Source: Isoetes taiwanensis
Lineage: Eukaryota; Streptophyta; Lycopodiopsida; Isoetales; Isoetaceae
DNA: 64,000 nucleotides
Assembly: GCA_021234155.1 (NCBI GenBank)
Contig: JAJEKV010000049.1
Location: forward strand, 1,021,487 to 1,085,486
Reading direction: 5' to 3'
The notes under the pieces were generated by a model. The model was given only the letters and a program-made list of their open reading frames with translations. It searched no databases and was not told where the DNA came from. The position numbers were made by a program, and so were the translations under genes. This document shows, one piece after another, positions 46,961 through 64,000 of this stretch (the first letter of the stretch is position 1; each line of letters starts with the position of its first letter).

Positions 46961-48278
46961 TTAAACAACATCAAACTCATCGTCCTCAATGTCAAGCGGG
47001 ATGAAATCAGCATAGGGATCAGCAGGCTCCTGAGCCGGGGGCTGCACTCCACTGTTAGCGTACACGAATTCATCACCACTGCTTCCCTCTCCAGATTTTT
47101 CCTCCCCATCCTCGAAGATGCCTGCAGCATCCCAAAAGCGCTTCCTTCTCCTTCCAACACGCTCTATTGGGACCACTCTTGGTTGGCTCCCAAATAATGA
47201 CATGCGCACATCCTTGTAGCTGCATTGCTGCGGTGCTAGCATAATGCGCCAAGCTGCCTGCACTCGTTCCAACGAGGCATATGCAGAGTTATTGGGCAAC
47301 ACCCAAGAACTCGCAAGCCTGAACTTGCCGGTCTGCAGCATGCATTTGATGGTGTGAAGAAGGGAAGCGGTCCTAAACCTGCCAGCATGATATGAAACAT
47401 AGTGGAAAGCTTTGGCCATGAGATTTCGATTGTCAAGCACTATCAAGTGCTTGACCTCCCCAGCCCCATATAATGCATAAAGCTCCTTCCTAGCGTGCAC
47501 TTGCTCCGCAGATACATTGTGTATGTGAGCTTTAAAGTGCAACTTCCCAATGTCTTTCAAACAATAGCCCACGAGGCCTTCGAAGCAATGCAATTTGCTT
47601 CCGGGTGAACGCATGTTGTAGTGGAACACCCTGGGTGTCCCCCCTGTCCCCCCTAAAAATGTGGTGGGAGATATCAAATTTGTGGTGCGATTTTAAATGT
47701 TTGTTTGGCGCCTAGTGCATGTACTGCCCGGATTCAATCATTTCTTGAACTGCAACAACCCAATTCCTACGCCACCCGTCCCATTCCAATCTCCACGGAA
47801 CCGATTTCTAAACCCACGACCCACCCGCGCCTTTCCTGAAGCACACGGCTATGGCGCTTAATCCGGTTGTGGAGGCAGTGCCAGAGATCCAGACAATTCA
47901 TCTTACAAGTGATCCACTCCTGACAGTTAGTGGGCATTGTGCAATCTTCGTTCAAACCAGCAGCAGCCATACTGAGCGCCATCGGATGCCTTCGTTTCTC
48001 TCGGTTCGTCTTATATAGCCAACTGAGGAACTCCTTGTCGACGTGGACCAATCACACAAATCGCCAACGTGTTTGCAATGCAAGGCTGTTTCTAAAATGA
48101 GAATCTGTTCTCCCGCCGCATATCTAGCCATGGTACCTTCTGACACATTCCTTTTAATGATATCCCACTTCGAGTTGCCAGCATTGAATGCCATTCCTTC
48201 TTTCCACGCCCGTCGAACATTAATGGGTGTCCTTTGCCATCTGTCCCATCCGATCTTTCTTTCACGTCTCATCCTCAC
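46961..48278 (-). pseudogene. Broken gene with GYCLKD motif, possibly HUH-endonuclease (Replitron-like)
   Basis: Three minus-strand pieces look like one protein. From 48278, a basic N-terminal piece includes WDIIKRNVSEGTMARYAAGE and CKHVGDLCD. After a one-base frame change near 48048 it continues VDKEFLSWLYKTNREKRRH to TMPTNCQEW. From about 47640 to 46961 a long piece has SKLHCFEGLVGYCLKDIGK, NRNLMAKAFHYVSYHAGR, WRIMLAPQQCSYKDVRMSLF and an acidic end. GYCLKD fits the Y-x-x-K motif of rolling-circle HUH endonucleases, and the layout recalls Replitron-type transposons of the green lineage. I could not find an HUH triad, so this is a resemblance only. The gap 47766-47640 holds stops and may contain lost coding sequence or an intron. 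Confidence 0.35.
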
Positions 48279-53456: not shown

Positions 53457-54792
53457 CTACTGACTGTTGAGAATGCGAATCTTGACTTCCTTCAAAATGT
53501 CCGTAAAGTCATGAATGACTGCATTTGAAGCGGGAACTTCACCTTCAATCTTTGTGATAAATGAATCTAAACCACATCTATAGACAATCTCAAATGGAGT
53601 TTTCTGCGTTACCAAATGAACGGTATTGTTATACGCAAATTCTAGCATATATAGATAATCCTCCCACTGAGTTTTCATTTTTGCTAGATAAGCCCATAAC
53701 ATATCTTCAATAGTTATGTTAACAACTTCTGTTTGGCCATCTATTTGGGAATGATAGGCTGTAGAAAACTTCAAAGTGGTACCCAAATTCTTCATAGGTC
53801 CTGAACAAAATTTGCTGCAGAATATTGGATCTCTATCTATGATAATTGCATCAAGCAATCTATGTATCCTAAATATCTCCTTCAAAAAGAATTTGCTCGC
53901 TTGAGGATCTGTCATGGTGGACTTACAAGGAATAAAATGAGCTTGTTTAGACAGCCCGTCCACTTCTATCCATATCTGATTGTTCTTATGAGTAGAATTT
54001 TGGAAACGCTGGATGAAATCCATAGTAATGTGCTTCCATGGCTCTTCTGGTTTTGGTAAGGGTTGTAACAATCCAGTCGGTTTACTAGTTGAAGCTTTAA
54101 CTTGCAGACAAATTGTACAAGCTTCTACATATCTTCTGATATCCCTTCCCAGTTTAGGCCAATAGAATTGCCTTTTTACAGTAGCAAGTGTAGCTTGAAC
54201 TCATGGATGACCAGAATAAGGAGGTTCATGACATTCTTGCATCATTTTCTGCCTATATGCCTGTGTAACACATAAGCGATTTCGGTATAGAAGGGAACCA
54301 TTATGCAACCTGTATTCTCCAAGAGGATCTCAGCCTTCTTTTTCTAATAGATTGAATGGCACTACAGAAGAAGGATCATTTCTATAATCCAATTTCATTG
54401 GATCTAAGTCAGTGATTCTGGCAATAGACATTGCATGTGTAAACACCCGGCTTAAAGGCATCAGCAATCTTATTCTCCTTCCCTGGTTTATACTGTAGCT
54501 GCATACCCTCAAAGTCTTTGATGGTATCAACGAGTTTCAACTGACGTGCATTTATGATATCCTGAGTTTGAATACGCCTTAGACTTTGCTGATCAAATCG
54601 GGCTATGAATTTAATTTCCATCAGATAATGTCTCCATTTCTTTAGTGCATGTATTAAAGCAATCAACTCTTTCTTATAAGTAATGTAGCCCTGCTCATAA
54701 GGTTTTAGCATACGGCATGGGTGCCCATCTTGCATAAGCACTGCGCCAATAGCACTACCACTTGAGCACACTATAAATGAACTATCATTCAA
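53457..54792 (-). pseudogene. Ty3/gypsy retrotransposon pol remnant (RNase H, zinc-binding, integrase)
   Basis: On the minus strand the order is RNase H (54792-54409: SAIGAVLMQDG, YITYKKELIALIHALKKWRH, LQYKPGKENKIADA), then a decayed H2C2 zinc-binding region (about 54280-54080) with several stops, then the integrase core (54071-53457). The core keeps HITMDFIQRF, IWIEVDGLSKQAHFIP, IIIDRDPIF and the GQTEVVNITIEDMLWAYL stretch, so the three acidic positions of a D,D-35-E core are present. YNNTVHLVTQKTPFEIVY is typical of plant gypsy elements. Reverse transcriptase, LTRs and chromodomain were not found nearby. The element is fragmentary and dead. Confidence 0.85.
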
Positions 54793-55127
54793 TTAAATTG
54801 GGATTATGTCTATTCCAAAATCGCGCCGTATAATCCTTTTATTGACTATTATATTGAATTAACCACACTTTTGCACTGAGTTCATTTTCGGGCTAGGAAG
54901 ATGCATTTTGTGTTGAAATGCAAAGGCAATATAAAAAGTAGGAAATTGCTTATTATTTCGTACCATCACGGACGACAACGAAATCTATAGATTGAAATTT
55001 TAGTGCTTTACAAATAAATAACGGCAAGCAAGTTGCTACAAAACAGAGATTTTCGTGGTTCAAATCGCGCGTGGCGCGATTTTGTTGGCATAAATATAGC
55101 ATTATAATGGAACATAAACTTAAAAAA

Positions 55128-55364
55128 CTATTCCGATTCATCGTCGACAAGCGCTCCTGAGATCCTGTCGATCATGAACAAACCATGTTCTGGATTCCAT
55201 ATAAGATGGATTACAACATCAAAGGGATCAGGATAGCAGCGGATGGGATTCATAGCAACGACAGTCAGCCAGTCCTCAAGTTCTATTTCTAGCTGGCGGC
55301 ACCTGCAGAGGTCCTCATGGTTCATCTTGCAGGTAATAGAATGTGCCATAATAAGAAGAAGCAA
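55128..55364 (-). CDS. Small acidic ORF, unknown
   Basis: The minus strand encodes about 65-78 residues with MNHEDLCRCRQLEIELEDWL, NPIRCYPDPFDVVIHLIW and a C-terminus GALVDDESE before the stop. Composition looks protein-like, rich in W, D and E. It is the most downstream member of the same-strand group that includes the FCP1-like exon and the ParB/methyltransferase-like gene. An ATCGCGC palindrome lies 45-65 bp after its stop. It could be a terminal exon. No family recognised. Confidence 0.35.
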   Translation of the reverse strand: MLLLIMAHSITCKMNHEDLCRCRQLEIELEDWLTVVAMNPIRCYPDPFDVVIHLIWNPEHGLFMIDRISGALVDDESE

Positions 55365-55612
55365 GCGGAGTCCGAAGCCGATGGTTTGGCAATTTCATGC
55401 ATATCTATTTATACACACCTAAATTATTGACGGTATATATATACAAATTATTGCAAGTATAGCAAACCATACACATAATATAAAAAAAACAATACGTACA
55501 CAGAACCAATAATGCTGCTATAAGAACACAATATATATTCGAAAGATGTTGGTGTAAAGTATATTTCATATTCAAAACTTTTTGGAAAGTGTATTTCCTG
55601 TATACATATATA

Positions 55613-56267
55613 TCAAAAAAGTTCCCTTTCTAAAAGGATTTTCTCAAGGTCCCTGTCAATTTCCCCTGTCCGATCAAGTTGCGGGTATAGTGTTTGTATC
55701 TCTTCGACCGTTTTTTCTGAAGCTATTTTGTGCAAGACACTAACAAAACCAAGCAGGAAGTCATCTTTGTCAAACATATCAGGATGATAGGATGGCGGAT
55801 TTAATGACTGTGACTGATTGAAGCAACACTCTAGAGCGTCATCATCCACCATGATCATGCTTCCCTTTTCCTCAACACCTAGGGCATCCATCATGTTGCG
55901 CAAGCATTTCACAAATATCTTTTTACCTGTCGGCTCTTTAGGGTTTGTGAATGAAGCACATTTGCTTTGATCCCAGATGGACGCCCAATCTCTATTTAGC
56001 TCAGGCACTACTTTCAAAACTTCCTGTATATTTCTATGCTTCAAAGATGACCAAATTGCACAACGAAATAGACTGAAGGCCTGGTCCAACATCTCCTTCA
56101 GATAAGGGCGTGGGTAAACATATTTGGTACGTGTCTCAAATGGTTGTTGCGCATACCATGACTTATCAAACGTTGCTTTAAAGCACGAATTAATTACTTT
56201 GAGAAATTTGGAATTCTCGTTGACCTCGAAATAGGTTGCACTGCCCATATAAATCGCTAAAAGAAGT
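55613..56267 (-). CDS. FCP1/NIF-type HAD phosphatase-like exon
   Basis: About 217 residues of an FCP1-homology (NLI-interacting factor) fold. Visible are YPRPYLKEMLDQAFSLFRCA, the motif II-like IWSS, WDQSKCASF, a Lys-containing segment (GKKIFVKCLRNMMDALG) and the acidic motif IV (MIMVDDDALECCFN), then SYHPDMFDKDDFLLG. The exon probably begins after CATAG at 56268, with phase 2, so that the first residues LLLAIYMG would follow a DxDG-type nucleophile motif in an upstream exon. I did not find that exon. Proteins of this family dephosphorylate Ser/Thr of RNA polymerase II CTD or related targets. Without the nucleophile exon, activity cannot be claimed. It ends LERELF and stop. Same strand as the ParB/methyltransferase-like gene. 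Confidence 0.6.
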
Positions 56268-56309
56268 CTATGAGGACCTCAATGGTGAAGAAAAAACATG
56301 CAAAAAAGG

Positions 56310-56695
56310 TGGAACAAATCGCCATTGCGATCTTCTTTATCATAAGAAACCAATATATGAACATTTTAAGGCAATTTTATACAAGATAGTGTAATAATTT
56401 TACAAATTTTATACATGAAAGGCTTGCAAAGATCGCCATTGCGATCTTCTTGAACAAAAAATGAGAGCATATTGGATACATGAATAAAATAGCTTGCTTA
56501 TTTTTGCATTTAAGAAGTCTATATAAAATTATACCTCTTGTCCATTAATAGAAATTATTAATATACAAAGAATACAACTTATCAAAAAAATCAAAATTTA
56601 TGCTCAACAAAATCGCTGTGGCGATCTTGCTGAGCAGACCCATAGCTCTCTACACTTTTTAGTGCTCAACTAAATTGCGATAGCGATCCAGTGGA
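56310..56695. repeat. Short palindromes of the ATCGC-NNNN-GCGAT type
   Basis: Four copies: ATCGCCATTGCGAT at about 56318 and 56432, ATCGCTGTGGCGAT at about 56612, and ATTGCGATAGCGAT at about 56674. The third is embedded in longer arms (TGCTCAACAA ... TTGCTGAGCA). They share the outer arms ATCGC/GCGAT with the longer ATCGCGCCWGGCGCGAT family found upstream and downstream, but have a 4-base core. They occupy the AT-rich gap upstream of the FCP1-like exon. Confidence 0.7.
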
Positions 56696-56826
56696 GCAAG
56701 AATTCACCTTATATGCAGTCCTTAGAAAGAATTCACCTTATATGCAGTCCTTAGAAAAATTCGTACGGCCTGTCAAATGTTTAACTAGATACTTTTTATT
56801 TGAAACAATTTTATTTCTTGTTGTTG

Positions 56827-57036
56827 CTATGCTGGGAGAGATGGCAGATATGAAGCTTCCAGAAGAGTAGGAAGACGCATTGGATAGTCAGCTACTGGAA
56901 TTTTGAACTGTAATTGTCTGCAATAAGCCAATTGATAAGCATAGTTGTCGATATAGGAATACCTTTTGGTGTTGACAAGAATGGAGTGTCTTATCCAGCC
57001 ATACCTCAATCTGAGCACACTGGATCTGCACCGCAT
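56827..57036 (-). CDS. Possible exon between FCP1-like and methyltransferase-like parts
   Basis: A 70-codon minus-strand frame follows GTAACAG at about 57037 and reads YGWIRHSILVNTKRYSYIDN, then LQFKIPVADYPMRLPTLLEA. Its composition looks like protein, and it sits where an exon joining the upstream methyltransferase-like ORF to the FCP1-like exon could lie. It ends in a stop at 56827 with no good donor before it, so it may equally be a separate ending or chance. Confidence 0.25.
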   Translation of the reverse strand: MRCRSSVLRLRYGWIRHSILVNTKRYSYIDNYAYQLAYCRQLQFKIPVADYPMRLPTLLEASYLPSLPA

Positions 57037-57844
57037 ACTGTTACAATATTATTTCTAAATTTGCAATTTGCAGTCTAAGCAGAAAAGGCTCACATGTTAT
57101 TTTTGCACAAAATAAGAATAGAAGGAGCTCTCTGATAGAATCGCAGATCGGAATGTCAGGAGGGCATAGCTACAAATTTCATTCACAAAATCCGATATGC
57201 CTGAATAAATATTTCTCTTACAATCAGAGGAATTCCTTGCAAAGAATACATGCCTGCAGTCTGCTGAAAACGTCGGCTCTGCTCATGGCCATGGCTCTGT
57301 TCAAATTGCCTGCTCTGTCCATGGCCGCCTCTGCATGCTACACAAAATTTCGTCCCCAAAAACCTTCACGATTTAGGCTCAAACTGGTGCTATTGCTACC
57401 TTCGGCTATGGTGACCTTCTATTCCGGCTATGGCGACCCTGGCTATGGCTGGCGACCTTCTGTTCGACCTTGAGCTTGGAGCTCCGGCCTCCTTATCGCC
57501 AAGCAAAGTGGGCGCTGGCAACCTATATGCTCATATATTTAGATAAATATTCAAATTTCAAATTGTCCCGTCCAATTTGAGCGGGACAAATTTAAACTAA
57601 AGCTGAACCACTTTTTGCTTATGGTGGACCCGGACGAGGTGATTCAAAATTCTCAAAATCCCGCTTTTTTATCTAAATAATGAATTCGTGCTTTTTAGGT
57701 AACGTTCTACATAGCACACCATTCAAATCAAAGACCAGTACTTTTGGGGAAGCCGAATCATGTCTGTAAGGCAAACAATAACGTATGAGATGAAGGAAAT
57801 GGAAAACGAAAACGCGCCGGGCGCGATTTCATTAATGATGCATG

Positions 57845-60800
57845 TCAACAAAATCTAAAAATATGATCTCTAGGAAACTCTAAATCGCGCCAGGCGCGAT
57901 TTCTATATGCTTGTCGTGTGTAAAATGCATGGATATAAAAAAAAGGGAACATTGTCACCAACCACATCAGTTGAGATCTGTACAGTTGAACTATGCTTGA
58001 TAGTTCATTACTCTTTACGCTAACCTGGCTAGTGCTTTCAGATTTGGAGTCTGCTTCATCATCATTCTTGTTATTATCATCATCCTTGTTATTTTCATCC
58101 TGTTCTATATTTTCACAGTCAAGGATGTTCACAGGCATGTCGACAGGTACTTGGTGATCTGTCTGCTCGTCGATGTCATCCACGATGTTGTCAACCAAGA
58201 GCTGTCTCATAGCCTCCCGTTCTTTAGCCAAATCTGCAGGTATTTCGGCCTTAGAGGTAGAAGCTTTGTTTTTTGCACTGCCGATTGGTCCCTTAGGTGC
58301 TTCCTCTAGTACTTTCTCAAAGAAGAGGTCCAAGAAATTTTTGGCTCGATCATCGGAGACGACGCTCTGGCATTTCCTTGCTAACTTCAAAGCTTCCCTA
58401 CCGATGTAACCTCCAACGTGAAGCTCCCAGCAAGTTGTCCCCAATGGGCAAAATGCTTCAATGAGATAATGAGAAAGGTCCATAGAGAACCCGTTCTTGT
58501 TTAGTTTCCCCCTATGTGAAGTTAGGAGCTCATACTTAATGTGCTCCACAAGAACTGGGTCGGCCTGGTTTTCTTCCTCTTCTTCCCCTTCTTCCTCTAG
58601 CTCTTCCACGACCTTGACACCCTTCCCCTTATCTTCTTGCTCCAGATAGAAGACGTTTCGCAGGACGCGTTCATCTAACTGATAGCACTGCCATGCAAGT
58701 TTGTCTCCTTCTGGTTTTCCCTTAAGCCTTTCATATTCCTTATCATCCATCATGGCTATCATAATGATAAGCACATGAGAAATTTTACTTGCTGTGCTGA
58801 AGTCACTGTCCCTGTTTTCATCTATGAGGATCGCGTGTCGTATGACTTTCACGCATTCTAAGTCATTTGCAGCAGTTAGAGCATATGCATAGGACATGTC
58901 GGAGGGACATATAGTGACAATTGTGTAATTCATCTCCGTCGTGAAACCACTGCATATGTTGAAGAACGTATTATAGTCGTCAAGGGACCATCTGGTGCCT
59001 CGGCTATCAAGCACGAAGAGTGTGATATCATGGGGACCTGCACCCACCTCTGGCAAGGCACACTTGAAACCAGTGGACACTTGATAAAAAAACGTGGATT
59101 CCGTCTCCAGGGTCTGCTTCACCAACGCGACTTTTCGTTTCAAGTCGGATGCAACTTTAGTGTGAATCCCTTTAAGGTTTGCAATGTTCTTCAACTTCTG
59201 CTGCCTGACAAAGTCTTTGGACCAAAAGACATACTTCTTCAGGTCGTTGTTGGAGACGTTATATTTTTTGCATGAGTCCTAACTCCGACAACGACCAATC
59301 TCCTGTAAGCCTTTGTAATTCCTCACCAACTGCCTTCTTGAGCACTCTAATATTTTTCAGTTGGTCGCATGCATCTTCAAATGATTCCATAACCTTTGTT
59401 GCTGAGGTTTTCTTGTAAAGGATTTCCTTTCTGATTAACCTATCCAGAACTGAGATCAGTTCTTGATCGTCCAATCCCTGGGCCTTCCTCATCTTTGTTA
59501 TATGGATATCAAAAATTGATGTGTCAACAGAAGGAAATCTGCCTTGTGAATCTGGCAACTTCTTCTCCACGTAGGCATCCCAGAATTCATTCCATTTCTC
59601 CCATACTGGATCTGAAGAAAAAATAATCTTGCAGGCATCCTTGGGTACAGTTTGTTCTTCGGAAGCATCACCCTTTTCATCTCTTTTTTTTTTCTTTGAT
59701 CTGGTGCTCTTGATTTTGTCCTGTTCTGACAAAGTGTCCTTTCCAGCAACTTGAATCCAGCACTTTTGGACTGGCCCTGTCTGGTCGGCATTGGCTTCCC
59801 ATATTCAATCCACTGGTTCCGAGCATGCCGAAGTTGCTCTATATAGGGACTGCAAGGAATAACTTTGTTAGCTTCAGTAACTGTGAATTCAAACAATCCT
59901 TCTAGTTTAAAATCGCGCCAGGCGCGATTTCATATTAGAAAGCAAATCGCGCCAGGCGCGATTTGCGTACTCTGAAGAGAAAAGGCTTCCTGGATTGGTA
60001 GTCATTTCTTCTCAAATAAGCAAATCGCGCCTGGCGCGATTTCATATTAGAATGCTAAACGCGCCACGCGCGATTTGCCTACCCTGAGGAGAAACAGCTA
60101 TCTTCAAGGATAGCCAAGTCTCCTCAGACTAGGCAAATCGCGTGGCGCGATTTGCATTCTAATATGAAATCGCGCCAGGCGCGATTTGCTTATTTGACGA
60201 GAAACGGCTACCATTCCAGGAAGTCTTTGCTCTTCAGAGTATGCATTGCTTTCTAATATGAAATCGCACCTGGCGCGATTTGCAAATATGAAAAGGAAAA
60301 ATGAGGGAAGAGAATTACCTTTTGTATAAGAAAGTTTTTCCCATGTCATTCAGGAGTGCGCTTATTTCGGCTAGCTCGGCAGGTGTTGTTTGAACCGCCA
60401 GAACCGGCAGGTTTCGACGAATACGACTTTATAGAACAACCGATGCCCAAGATGTCAGGCCTTCGATCGAGAACCTTCTGGACATCTATTGAATGCTGGC
60501 CATCTATTATCATAAAATGTATGGCTGGGTTCTCGATGAAGTCCTCCAGCTTGTTCCACATGATTACCTTCTTTGTTCTGGTATCGTAAGGCACTACATC
60601 TGCAGGCATTGGCACCTGATTTTCGATCATGCTGTTCACTATCTCCAAGAAGTGCTGCTTGTCATACCTTCTGCTGACATAAATGGCTTTAGTGGACCTG
60701 AAAAGCCTATCCACGTGGACTGGATGGGTGAAGTTCAGGCCCAGTGGATATTTGTCAGCATATTTTTTCAGTTTTCTCATTGCCTTCAACTGCCTGGCCT

Positions 60801-62313
60801 TGTCATCGTCACTTGTAAGGCCTGGTGTCACTTCTGTAGTTTCCCTGCCTTTAGAGCTAGCTTCTTCCTTATCCTTCACTGCCTGTAAGTAGACACTGCC
60901 CGAGGGCCTCGTGCTAATGGCTCGTCGAACAGCTGTAAGCCCCTCGCATATTCTTTTAGGAGTCAATGGCTCGCCAACTGTCCAGTCAAATTTAAAGAGG
61001 GAATCAGCCGTGTCGTCTGATCTTAATGCAGTCTCTTTAAAAGAGCTAGAACTGCATCGATTGATCTTCTTTAGGCTCTTCTTATTTTTTTGGCCCACTT
61101 CAACTAGCACTGAACAGAAAGAATCGTCATGTACTTCACATGTGATAAGAATTCCCTGCTTCTTCATTTGATCAGTCTCTCTTACCCTAGACATGAATAT
61201 GAGGTCTGTCTTTCCACTAGTTTTGAAGATCTCCACATACCATTCTGACCCCTCTATAAGATCTTCTTCTGGATATGGAGATTCCACCTGAGCCTTTATT
61301 ATTCCAGATGTATCTTCTAACGTCAATACATGCTGCAGGTCTGTAACAGTAACATCTTCATCTGTCCTTCGCTTTTTCTGGGCTGAAGAGGTCTCACTGT
61401 GCTTGGTTTTCCTTTTGATTGTCTTTTGTGATCCTGTAAAATTACAGCACATGGGTTAATCTTTTAATGCTAAAATATATGCTAACTCGAAACGTATGCA
61501 ACAAAAACGCGTTTGGCGCGATTTGAAAATGAATACAGAGCAAGTTCATTTACTTAATTAGGGCCAGGGGCGTTTTGTCAATATAAATTCGAAGGAAAAG
61601 AAACTAATGTAATGACTTAATGAAACTGCGCCAGGCGCGTTTTGTCCCAATCAAAATGCAACAAATACGCGCTTGGCGCGCTTTAGAAGTGACCTTAAAG
61701 ATAAAGAAACTAATGTAATGACTTATTAAATTGCGCCAGGGGCTTTTTGTCTGAATCAAAATGCTCAGGACACAACTAACTATAAAAAGCACAACTTAAA
61801 GAGTTGAATCTTCATCTCAAGATATAGAAACTAATGTAATGCCTTATTCAATTGCGGCAGGGACACAAATAACTATAAACACCACAACTTAAAGAGTTGA
61901 ATCTTCATCTCAGGACACAACTAACTATAAAAAACACAACTAACTAGTGAATACTGTTCAGCTAAGTATACAAGCTTGAAACAGCACATACATCATTAAA
62001 AGAAAAAACAACATGCACACATTAAGCATTCATTTGCATACATTTTTGGGACATATGAACTCAAGTATTAGAGGACATATGCTTCTTATCGGATAATAAC
62101 TCTACTATTAGAGAAAAAAATCCTAAAAAACCTAACAAAAAGAAGGACACGGAAATAAATTACAGAACAAAAACACTGATTCATACCTGAGGCGCTTGCT
62201 GGATTTGTGCTTTCTGCTTGTTCAGCAAGCTCCAGGCTTTGGATTTGTGCTTTGGCCTGTCGCACACCTCTACCTGTGCCTCGGCCGCGGCTGCCAGATC
62301 CTCTAGACGCCAT
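57845..62313 (-). CDS. ParB/sulfiredoxin-like plus degenerate DNA-methyltransferase-like protein
   Basis: Exon 1 (62313-62187) encodes a Gly/Arg-rich N-terminus (MASRGSGSRGRGTGRG) and ends TCAG/GTATGA. Exon 2 (61433-60319) starts after TTTTACAG with matching phase. It contains a basic stretch (AQKKRRTDED), then LNFTHPVHVDRLFRS, and FMIIDGQHSIDVQKV, a DGQH(R/S) motif of ParB/sulfiredoxin-fold proteins. It ends AAAAG/GTAATT. Exon 3 (from 59849) continues SPYIEQLRHARNQWIEYG, then VWEKWNEFWDAYVEKKLPD. Next comes a methyltransferase-like part: FVLDSRGTRWSLDDYNTFF at the place of DPPY, and YLIEAFCPLGTTCWELHVGG then GREALKLARKC at the place of the SAM-binding motif. An acidic tail follows. The catalytic DPPY is absent, so activity is doubtful. 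Three one-base frame changes are needed, in runs at about 60389, 59775 and 59264-59269. The true 3' end of exon 3 is probably near 57960, before palindromes begin. Confidence 0.55.
59905..60300. repeat. Long inverted repeat filling an intron
   Basis: The two halves of 59910-60300 are reverse complements with roughly 85-90 percent agreement, centred at 60105/60106 (CTATC TTCAAG GATAG). Shared blocks in arm order are the palindrome, CATATTAGAA, a second palindrome, TACTCTGAAGAG, CTTCCTGG, CAAATAAGCAAATCG, CATATTAGAATGC, a third palindrome and CTGAGGAG. The unit makes up most of the 469-bp intron 2 (60318-59850) of the ParB/methyltransferase-like gene. Transcribed, it would form a long hairpin carrying smaller hairpins. 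Confidence 0.85.
61595..61945. repeat. Tandem repeats in intron 1 of the ParB/methyltransferase-like gene
   Basis: AGAAACTAATGTAATGACTT followed by a copy or relic of the palindrome occurs at about 61599, 61705 and 61830. AACTATAAAAAGCACAACTT followed by AAAGAGTTGAATCTTCATCT repeats at about 61778-61820 and 61870-61912. In the later copies the palindrome has decayed to TTGCGCCAGGGGC and TTGCGGCAGGG. Confidence 0.75.
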
Positions 62314-62589
62314 AGAACTACAAGTGCAGATAATATGAGACTGGGATTTTGGTTTAAACTTATATGTATGCGTTCATAATCTAGGCCGTCAGATTTACAA
62401 CCGTAAATTCAAATTCGCGTCCTTTTCAATTTATACCGCCTGAATTAACCGCCCATCCCGCTCATTTACAAATTTAAAATGTGTTTTTCTTTGCAGTGCA
62501 ATTTCAAGAAAACAAATAATTATTATTTTCAAGAAACGCATATGTGGCAATCTACTACCACCTAATCGGCCACCTACTATCAGAGCGCC

Positions 62590-62762
62590 CTCAATCGACC
62601 CGCCCTCAGAGCGCCCAAGATCAATCGACCCGTCTAGAGTGCCCAAGATCAATCGACCCGTCTAGAGCGCCCAAGATCAATCGACCCTTAAGATCGCCCA
62701 AGATCAAGTCTAGACGCTTAAGATCGATCGAGCCGCCTTCAATCCCAAGATCAATCGATGTC
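62590..62762 (+). repeat. Minisatellite of about 28-bp units
   Basis: GCGCCCAAGATCAATCGACC followed by CGTCTAGA repeats about four times from 62607, then degenerates (AAGATCGCCCAAGATCAAGT, TTAAGATCGATCGA) to about 62762. It lies just upstream of exon 1 of the minus-strand gene, in its presumed promoter region. Confidence 0.75.
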
Positions 62763-62849
62763 TGCGGAACTAAAGTGAGTGTGATTCCATTCCGAATATG
62801 CACACCTTCGTCCTCTATTTTTCCCAATGCCAATTCTACCATTCTGGTT

Positions 62850-63105
62850 CTTTATCAGTGTCGGAGAAGAATGCTATCTTTTAACAGCAAACTTGAAGCG
62901 CCGAGTAGGATTATGTAAAGTCGAAGATCTGAATCCAAGTTCTATGTGTCATGGTGTTCCTCTTGGAAACAGTTTCTGTAAGATTTCCATTATAAACTGC
63001 AATTATGAAGATGAGGCTCTTCTACGAAGACATCCCGATGGCGATACAGTTGGTGAAAGCGGGGGCACATTTGTAGCATGACCAAAAGAACGTCTGAAAA
63101 AGGTA
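62850..63105 (+). pseudogene. Fragment resembling a plant transposon-associated domain (DUF8039-like)
   Basis: The plus strand from a TTTATCAG acceptor (about 62857) encodes EECYLLTANLKRRVGLCKVE, then HGVPLGNSFCKISI, then DGDTVGESGGTFVA, TGA, PKERLKK. The pattern of a K/R-rich strand, a 'PLG.SF.KI.I' strand and a final 'G.A/T.F.AWP' block recalls the DUF8039-type domain seen at the C-terminus of many plant transposon-derived proteins. The Trp expected in that last block is replaced by TGA at 63079-63081. Family assignment is from memory of the pattern and is tentative. Confidence 0.3.
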
Positions 63106-63180
63106 ATGTATATGAGGATAGTAAAAAAGAAAATGAATATATCATAACATCTGCGTAATGTTGTGAATTTTGAATTCTTT

Positions 63181-63274
63181 GATGGTCTTTAGCCAGTCTT
63201 ATCAACCCCATGAAACTACACATTAATGAAAATGTGTAGTTTCTTGGGGTTGGTCATACTGACTGGAGGGCATC
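63181..63274. repeat. Perfectly centred 94-nt hairpin
   Basis: The arms 63181-63224 and 63231-63274 are reverse complements with few mismatches; the best-paired part is CAACCCCATGAAACTACACA against the opposite arm. The loop is AATGAA. Size and pairing resemble a small-RNA precursor or a short foldback transposon. No flanking target duplication was found. Confidence 0.7.
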
Positions 63275-63470
63275 AAAGGATTCAATGTTTTCGACATTGC
63301 ATATAAAAAAACATAATAAAATAAGCGTGACATAAAAGTATAAGCTGCAAAATTGCGCCAGGCGCGAGTTTGTATTTATATTCAAAAAAAATGTATGTAC
63401 ATTTTTCCTTCTGTGAAAATGCGCCAGGCGCGAGTTCTTTCTAAACTAACATAGCAGGCTGTACAAATCT

Positions 63471-63841
63471 CTACAAAATGTCACATAGGCCCACTTCATC
63501 GGCTACATATCGAGTCCAATCCCACCTGTACCACTCTGATATGACATCATCCTCCCATTCCCTGCGAATGTCAAGTCTCCAAATCAGAGTGTCCCGTCGA
63601 TCCTTGATACTCCTAATCAAAGCCTCATATTTATTTGTTGGCATGAGCCTTACTAAGAGCATGAGGAGCCGCATAAATCCAGTGATGCGATGGTAGCATT
63701 CCCATGGCCCCTGATACAGACTGTCATATGGCTTGTCCAACTCTCTTTGAATGTTTTGAACAGCACAATTAAGTAGTATCTTGTATAGGGTCCAGCGTTG
63801 ATGGTCGTCCAAGGAAGTATATTTGAACTAGAAGCAGCCAT
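63471..63841 (-). CDS. Small unknown protein upstream of the ParB/methyltransferase-like gene
   Basis: The minus strand encodes about 120 residues: MAASS (63841), then, after a one-base change in the AGTTCAAA stretch near 63827, SLDDHQRWTLYKILLNCAVQ, LYQGPWECYHRITGFMRLLM, LIRSIKDRRDTLIWRLDIRR and EWYRWDWTRYVADEVGLCDI. It is rich in Trp, Arg and Tyr, likely helical, with no signal peptide. It is flanked on both sides by copies of the CG-rich palindrome (63353, 63417, 63930, 63979). No family recognised. It may start at MAASS or be an exon beginning after TTCTAG at 63833. Confidence 0.45.
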
Positions 63842-64000
63842 GTGTAATGCACTAGAACGAGAGAAATCAACTAATTAGCAAATGATATTCCTCTCCCCAG
63901 AAAATGATTCTAAATATACAAAATTCAAAACGCGCCAGGCGCGTTTACTATAGTGTTTTTTTCACAGATCTACTTCATACGCGCCTGGCGCAATTTATAT

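What the first reader, a model, noticed from the sequence alone, without database searches (positions are those of the whole stretch)
55061..63995. ParB-like gene cluster threaded with about twenty CG-rich palindromes
The 17-21 bp palindrome ATCGCGCCWGGCGCGAT and relatives occur about 18 times in 9 kb, plus four with a shorter core. All lie in introns and spacers, and none are seen in the preceding 55 kb. The host gene encodes a DGQHS motif of the ParB/sulfiredoxin fold and a methyltransferase-like domain. Bacterial ParB proteins bind short palindromic parS sites, so a plant-nuclear protein recognising its own locus is a testable idea. A CG-rich hairpin MITE or simple amplification is the dull alternative.
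Basis: partly seen in the sequence, partly recalled or inferred. Interest (0 to 1): 0.8.

Follow-up and report, generated by a model that had tools for sequence, protein, structure and literature searches.

The report
Jumping gene with its own palindromes
The palindrome cluster belongs to a large plant jumping gene that carries the same kind of short palindrome in copies across the genome, possibly as landing sites for one of the proteins it encodes.

Summary
The palindromes are real: 19 relatives of AAATCGCGCCWGGCGCGATTT at 55-64 kb, none within 4 mismatches before. The host locus is not an ordinary plant gene but one copy of a ~12.5-kb DNA transposon that begins at window 54780 and runs past the window end. 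The genome holds 684 exact palindromes and 1,467 exact terminal repeats (reversed controls 0). All 10 end-pairs checked, plus one complete copy, have 32-bp identical terminal repeats and 4-bp target duplications. The ParB/methyltransferase-like coding region lies opposite a DUF7869 transposase-like gene. Of 20 palindrome clusters fetched, 18 carry it; the other two are 1.6-kb derivatives without it that keep termini and palindromes. The four "shorter-core" palindromes belong to a second, nested 1.5-kb element. Codon positions indicate purifying selection on the ParB- and MT-like parts between subfamilies. A ParB-methyltransferase protein opposite the transposase is already published for a brown-algal Sola1 transposon; the palindromes are what is added here. 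Binding is inferred, not shown; neither domain matched any profile; only 7 of 15 end-pairs no more than 14 kb apart hold an exact palindrome.

The parts
54780..54811 (+). terminal inverted repeat of the large transposon (ParB-side end), 1 base off the 32-bp family sequence
   Evidence: the family's first 29 bases occur 737+730 times in the genome, control 0
54817..54827 (+). half-site AAAATCGCGCC just inside the terminal repeat, on the ParB-side end only
   Evidence: exact in 5 of 10 end-pairs, altered in the other 5
55062..55082 (.). palindrome downstream of the last exon
55128..55349 (-). inferred terminal exon (MAHSITCK...DDESE), borders by eye; found in 16 of the 18 cassette loci
55613..56180 (-). 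NLI-interacting-factor (NIF/FCP1) phosphatase-like coding region, C-terminal part
   Evidence: PF03031 E=6.4e-14; 2e-17 in copy L016
56181..57693 (.). nested 1,513-bp TIR element (TIR AAGCACGAATT, TSD TTTA) inside the NIF gene, with four ATCGC-N4-GCGAT-type palindromes at 56318, 56432, 56612, 56674; presumed non-autonomous, its copy number was not searched
   Evidence: absent from copies X139 and X196
57694..57770 (-). NIF phosphatase-like N-terminal coding part (PKVLVFDLNGVLC)
57809..57902 (.). palindrome pair in the inferred intron between the MT-like and NIF parts
58026..59278 (-). methyltransferase-like part (ELHVGGYIGREALKLARKC; LDSRG where a DPPY-type motif would be expected)
   Evidence: codon-position divergence; no profile hit
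59259..59857 (-). middle part of the same coding region
59858..60316 (-). inferred intron holding seven palindromes in a tandem and inverted array; as RNA it folds into one long hairpin
   Evidence: -294.7 kcal/mol against -125.0 +/- 6.2 for shuffles
60317..61436 (-). ParB/sulfiredoxin-like part with FMIIDGQHS
   Evidence: codon-position divergence
61504..61748 (.). five degenerate palindromes in the inferred first intron
62190..62313 (-). inferred first exon (MASRGSGSRG...)
63350..63436 (.). palindrome pair in a spacer
63471..63827 (-). further element exon ('g4', no known family); found in 5 of the 18 cassette loci, many of which end before it
63927..63996 (.). palindrome pair; the element continues past the window end (locus L025), where the opposite-strand DUF7869 gene lies

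Best explanation
SHOWN: the cluster is part of a high-copy ~12.5-kb DNA transposon with 32-bp terminal inverted repeats and 4-bp target-site duplications. It encodes a DUF7869 transposase-like protein on one strand and, on the other, a ParB-like/MT-like protein, a NIF phosphatase-like part and a further exon. Palindromes sit in its introns and spacers, at matching places in the copies fetched, and also occur in 1.6-kb derivatives that otherwise share only the termini with it. A half-site lies just inside one terminal repeat, exact in 5 of 10 end-pairs. INFERRED: the palindromes are the element's own cis-acting protein-binding sites. The most likely reader is the element-encoded ParB/MT-like protein, which would coat or modify the element's DNA and so help it escape silencing or help transposition.
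For: Termini: 10 of 10 end-pairs with 32-bp identical TIRs and perfect 4-bp TSDs; a complete 12,477-bp copy with TSD CATT in a LINE whose frame is intact at the empty site. Genome counts: 684 exact palindromes, 1,467 exact TIR ends, reversed controls 0. 34 of 35 listed palindromes lie within 13 kb of an exact TIR, chance for a random point at most 2.3%. ParB-, MT- and NIF-like parts in 18 of 20 palindrome clusters. Beyond the termini, the 1.6-kb derivative L011 matches the complete copy only in internal stretches of 22-38 bases, all at palindromes. Between subfamilies A and B the flanks are 30-33% identical, the outer palindrome arms 95%, the centre 82% (68 pairs; chosen for exact palindromes except two A copies). 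Codon-position divergence to subfamily B: ParB .14/.13/.45, MT .18/.12/.43. The nested second element has its own palindrome core. Precedent: a 1,104-aa ParB-like plus methyltransferase protein opposite the transposase in a brown-algal Sola1 transposon, with the proposal that such proteins bind and modify their own element (PMC12477816, passages).
Against: No ParB or methyltransferase profile hit, and useless structure models. The DPPY-like position reads DSR in 6 of the 7 aligned copies that cover it, so methyltransferase activity is doubtful. Palindrome arms do not covary above expectation (4 both-changed pairs, 3.5 expected). By reading, 7 of 15 end-pairs no more than 14 kb apart hold an exact palindrome. 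TIR-first places that I fetched (all without an exact palindrome nearby, so biased against it): of 20 probes 8 reached the intron; 4 of the 8 had a form within 6 mismatches, 3 more a length-altered AAATCG...CGATTT form, 1 none. In TIR-first copies the arms are 67% identical against 30-34% for flanks, and anchoring on the best match inflates that (18 pairs). The half-site is altered in 5 of 10 end-pairs. No palindrome within 6 mismatches lies in the first 4.9 kb (transposase side) of the complete copy. The exon g4 shows no codon-position signal. Nothing shows which protein binds.
Confidence: 0.5

Rival explanations
1. The palindromes are internal binding sites of the transposase (DUF7869 protein) itself, as in CACTA or Ac elements (recalled), and the ParB-like protein is unrelated cargo.
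For: Two short derivatives keep termini and palindromes; a half-site adjoins one terminal repeat.
Against: In the complete copy the palindromes are 1.5-7.5 kb from the ParB-side end and absent from the transposase side; the half-site is on one end only and altered in 5 of 10 end-pairs.
Confidence: 0.22
2. The palindromes have no function: ancestral hairpin sequences duplicated locally and inherited by descent when the transposon copied itself.
For: Matching places in copies, local tandem and inverted duplication, no arm covariation, altered forms in TIR-first copies.
Against: Same palindrome in subfamilies whose flanks are unalignable (with ascertainment bias); present in derivatives that share little else; a second nested element has its own palindrome set.
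Confidence: 0.22
3. The palindromes act as RNA or DNA hairpins (splicing, cruciform, small-RNA production) and not as protein sites; one intron folds into a very long hairpin.
For: (-294.7 kcal/mol, z -27); three single palindromes fold at -9.4 to -9.6 kcal/mol as DNA, one of the nested element at -7.5.
Against: Other introns and spacers hold isolated 21-bp palindromes; short derivatives without these genes have them too; no compensatory changes.
Confidence: 0.1
4. One reading: a plant nuclear gene whose protein recognises its own chromosomal locus.
For: Gene and palindrome co-occur.
Against: TIRs, TSDs, high copy number, an opposite-strand transposase-like gene and short derivatives.
Confidence: 0.02

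Closest known systems
Sola1-1_Ec32, 21.5-kb giant DNA transposon of Ectocarpus (PMC12477816, passages read)
   Same: Large DNA transposon; about 1,100-aa ParB-like plus methyltransferase-like protein on the strand opposite the transposase.
   Different: Brown alga, 21.5 kb; the words palindrom and DUF7869 do not occur in the main text. Here: a 1.66-Gb, probably quillwort genome, 12.5 kb, dispersed palindromes. The two elements were not compared by sequence.
Sola superfamily of DNA transposons (4-bp TSD is recalled; superfamily listed in PMC4455052, passages)
   Same: TIR element with 4-bp target duplications.
   Different: Whether the DUF7869 protein is a Sola transposase was not tested; no Sola profile was available.
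Bacterial ParB-parS (recalled)
   Same: ParB-like motif and several short palindromes clustered around the gene.
   Different: No ParA among the 17 window ORFs scanned with Pfam, no profile support for the fold, plant transposon context.
Short palindromic repeats of Volvox carteri (PMC2670323, passages)
   Same: Short palindromes, nearly all in introns and spacers.
   Different: Those are organelle repeats with some nuclear copies that the authors think arrived by DNA transfer; these sit in one TIR transposon family.
CACTA (En/Spm) and Ac subterminal repeats (recalled)
   Same: Element-internal repeated binding motifs.
   Different: There the motif is subterminal at both ends and read by a transposase product; here it is internal and on one side of the complete copy.

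Membership tests
TIR DNA transposon | terminal inverted repeats flanked by target-site duplications in several copies | tested here: met
   10 of 10 pairs plus C139 with empty-site reading
Sola superfamily | 4-bp target-site duplication (recalled) | tested here: met
   also nested element TTTA
Sola superfamily | Sola-type DDE transposase | not tested
   only PF25273 DUF7869 (E 1.6e-26, 1 of 6 ORF pieces); no Sola model available
ParB-methyltransferase transposon accessory proteins | gene on the strand opposite the transposase | tested here: met
   (that the DUF7869 protein is the transposase is inferred)
ParB-methyltransferase transposon accessory proteins | ParB-like and DNA methyltransferase domains | tested here: inconclusive
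   DGQHS and MT-like motifs by eye; no profile or PDB match; models pLDDT 35-39
DUF7869 (PF25273) | score above Pfam's gathering cut-off | tested here: met
   93.6 bits against 26 for L025:2808-3677; broken pieces of the C139 copy did not hit
NIF/FCP1 phosphatase (PF03031) | score above Pfam's gathering cut-off | tested here: met
   52.4 and 63.8 bits against 21.8; the motif reads DLNGV, activity untested
ParABS partition system | ParA partner and sequence-specific ParB-parS binding | not testable with these tools
   no ParA among the 17 window ORFs scanned; binding needs an experiment

The most novel reading that the evidence does not exclude
A plant transposon carries a parS-like self-recognition system: its ParB/MT-like protein binds the family-specific palindromes scattered through its own introns and spacers to mark, shield or pair its copies, and short relatives exploit it by keeping the palindromes.
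Probability: 0.38. Interest if true: 0.85.

Novelty: new variant of a known kind. Interest (0 to 1): 0.62.

Why it matters
ParB-methyltransferase proteins are reported from algal transposons and have been proposed to bind and modify their own element (PMC12477816, passages), but no target site is named in the passages read here. A short palindrome repeated several times per copy, with 684 exact sites in the genome, is a concrete candidate target. It would make the idea of self-recognition by a eukaryotic transposon directly testable, and it would extend the architecture to a vascular plant (probably a quillwort).

Tried and rejected
Protein homologues: two single-protein searches found none at E 0.001 (in which only the 7,996 candidates sharing most words were scored) and an alignment search none at E 10; the database may hold few plants. 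PDB by sequence: one non-significant hit each time. Viral contigs with two proteins and the palindrome: nothing. AlphaFold without an alignment: pLDDT 35 and 39, not used. tblastn codon counts were confounded by frame changes and were replaced by a nucleotide-based count. Arm covariation as a sign of maintained hairpins: not above expectation. Literature searches (listings only) for the palindrome text, DGQHS, DUF7869, ParB in plants and Sola gave nothing direct; led to the Ectocarpus paper. Protein-first, DUF7869-family and AAATCG...CGATTT genome searches did not complete.
Full report
OBSERVATION. The palindromes are present as described. Thirteen sites match TCGCGCCWGGCGCGA within two mismatches, all from 55065 onwards, against 0.02 expected; counting more degenerate relatives there are 19. 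By exon borders inferred by eye they lie outside exons. Seven sit in one intron (59858-60316) that is a tandem and inverted array and folds as RNA into one long hairpin of -294.7 kcal/mol against -125.0 +/- 6.2 for shuffles. The four shorter-core palindromes start at 56318, 56432, 56612 and 56674.

WHAT IT IS. The genome holding the window (1,658,258,908 bases, 1,110 contigs) contains 684 exact palindromes and none of the reversed control. I fetched the first 20 palindrome clusters in listing order. Eighteen of 20 carry ParB-like, MT-like and NIF phosphatase-like parts in the same order; of these 18, the middle part is found in 17, the terminal exon in 16 and the g4 exon in 5 (many stretches end before it), with palindromes at places that match by eye. 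The other two, L011 and L019, contain a 1.6-kb element in which tblastn finds none of these proteins (L011 has a weak NIF match just outside it). Eighteen of 20 loci hold an exact 26-base terminal sequence (L012 and L023 do not within the fetched stretch).

TRANSPOSON. A complete copy lies at C139:115166-127642: 12,477 bp, 32-bp identical terminal inverted repeats, TSD CATT, inserted into a LINE whose reading frame is uninterrupted when the flanks are joined. The 29-base terminal sequence occurs 737+730 times, reversed control 0. Ten of ten end-pairs tested have perfect 4-bp TSDs and 32-bp identical repeats. The window copy starts at 54780, next to a Gypsy RNase H frame, and runs beyond the window into L025, where its homology to the complete copy stops at another insertion. 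On the opposite strand near the far end lies a DUF7869 protein (PF25273, E 1.6e-26; 1 of 6 ORF pieces scanned, the broken pieces of the C139 copy did not hit). It is transposase-like by position and by its LDNCAGQNKN...GHTHEDVD motif; the transposase reading is my inference.

NESTED ELEMENT. Window 56181-57693 is absent from two other copies. It has 11-bp inverted ends AAGCACGAATT and TSD TTTA, and holds all four shorter-core palindromes. It is a second, presumably non-autonomous element with a different palindrome core; I did not search for its other copies.

IS THE PALINDROME TIED TO THE ELEMENT? Of 35 exact palindromes on the contigs that both listings cover, 34 lie within 13 kb of an exact TIR end; a random point would do so in at most 2.3% of cases. 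The 35th is 14.6 kb from one, in a copy with the cassette. The 1.6-kb derivative L011 matches the complete copy only at its termini and in internal stretches of 22-38 bases, all at palindromes; L019 is 92% identical to L011. Both derivatives were found through the palindrome, so derivatives without it would have been missed.

SELECTION. There are two subfamilies. Against five B copies (L007, L010, L023, L024, L049) the window copy differs by codon position .14/.13/.45 (ParB).25/.12/.40 (middle).18/.12/.43 (MT) and .15/.09/.25 (NIF, four copies); against 16 A copies .09/.09/.13.08/.06/.12.07/.08/.12 and .08/.04/.10. The g4 exon shows no such pattern (.14/.15/.14 in A.22/.20/.18 in one B copy). 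So the ParB-, MT- and NIF-like parts look constrained between lineages, while individual copies decay nearly freely. In the MT-NIF intron the A and B flanks are 30-33% identical, the outer palindrome arms 95% and the centre 82% (68 pairs).

RESULTS AGAINST. That comparison used copies chosen for an exact palindrome (apart from L048 and L050). In copies found by TIR the arms are 67% and the centre 50% against 30-34% for flanks, and anchoring on the best match inflates this (18 pairs). Of 20 TIR-first probes (orientation mostly unknown, so about half were expected to miss) 8 hit the intron; 4 of 8 have a form within 6 mismatches, 3 more a length-altered AAATCG...CGATTT form, 1 none. Three larger TIR-first stretches (L048-L050) carry ParB-like, middle and MT-like parts but only altered palindromes. 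None of these TIR-first places has an exact palindrome listed nearby, so this sample is biased against exact ones; the fairer figure, read by eye, is that 7 of 15 end-pairs no more than 14 kb apart hold an exact palindrome. Arm changes do not compensate. The half-site inside the terminal repeat is exact in 5 of 10 end-pairs.

PROTEINS. Coding in the window copy is broken by single-base changes of frame near 60.43, 59.79 and 59.27 kb. Some other copies are open across the first of these, so decay or uncorrected nanopore errors in repeats are both possible. The ParB-like reading rests on the FMIIDGQHS motif; the MT-like reading on a motif-I-like stretch, and where a DPPY motif might be expected 6 of 7 aligned copies read DSR. 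No library or PDB search supports either. Whether the NIF part is a separate gene is unresolved.

COMPARISON WITH THE KNOWN. [quoted passage not shown] The present element fits that architecture, and its 4-bp TSD fits Sola (recalled). It adds the dispersed palindromes. Assembly size matches the Isoetes taiwanensis assembly (1658.30 Mb; 204 scaffolds plus 909 contigs, that is 1,113 against 1,110 here; PMC8566536, passages), so the host is probably that quillwort; this is an inference.

MECHANISM.

Noticed in passing
window 46961-47692 (-): ORF with a match to the Replitron HUH endonuclease domain (PF21859, E 1.9e-6, 28.7 bits against a cut-off of 28.5): a possible replitron remnant.
   Followed up: no
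window 63157-63298: Imperfect inverted repeat, two 68-base arms with a 6-base loop: a foldback element or precursor-like hairpin inside the transposon.
   Followed up: no
window 32979, 33091, 33892, 34092: Four copies of a dispersed motif CTCACACGTCGCGCCAG that shares the stretch TCGCGCCAG with the palindrome but is not palindromic.
   Followed up: no
window 53457-54792 (-): Gypsy integrase and RNase H frames abutting the transposon's terminal repeat, as if the element had inserted into a Gypsy retrotransposon.
   Followed up: partly
L011:4038-5653 and L019:4694-6365: A 1.6-kb derivative, 92% identical between the two copies, with perfect 4-bp TSDs (TAAA, CTAT), 28-of-32 identical terminal repeats and palindromes.
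   Followed up: yes
L007 and L010 (MT-NIF intron): Subfamily B intron where the palindrome is embedded in a longer one (AATTGAAATCGCGCCTGGCGCGATTTTCAATT) and recurs every 42 bases.
   Followed up: partly
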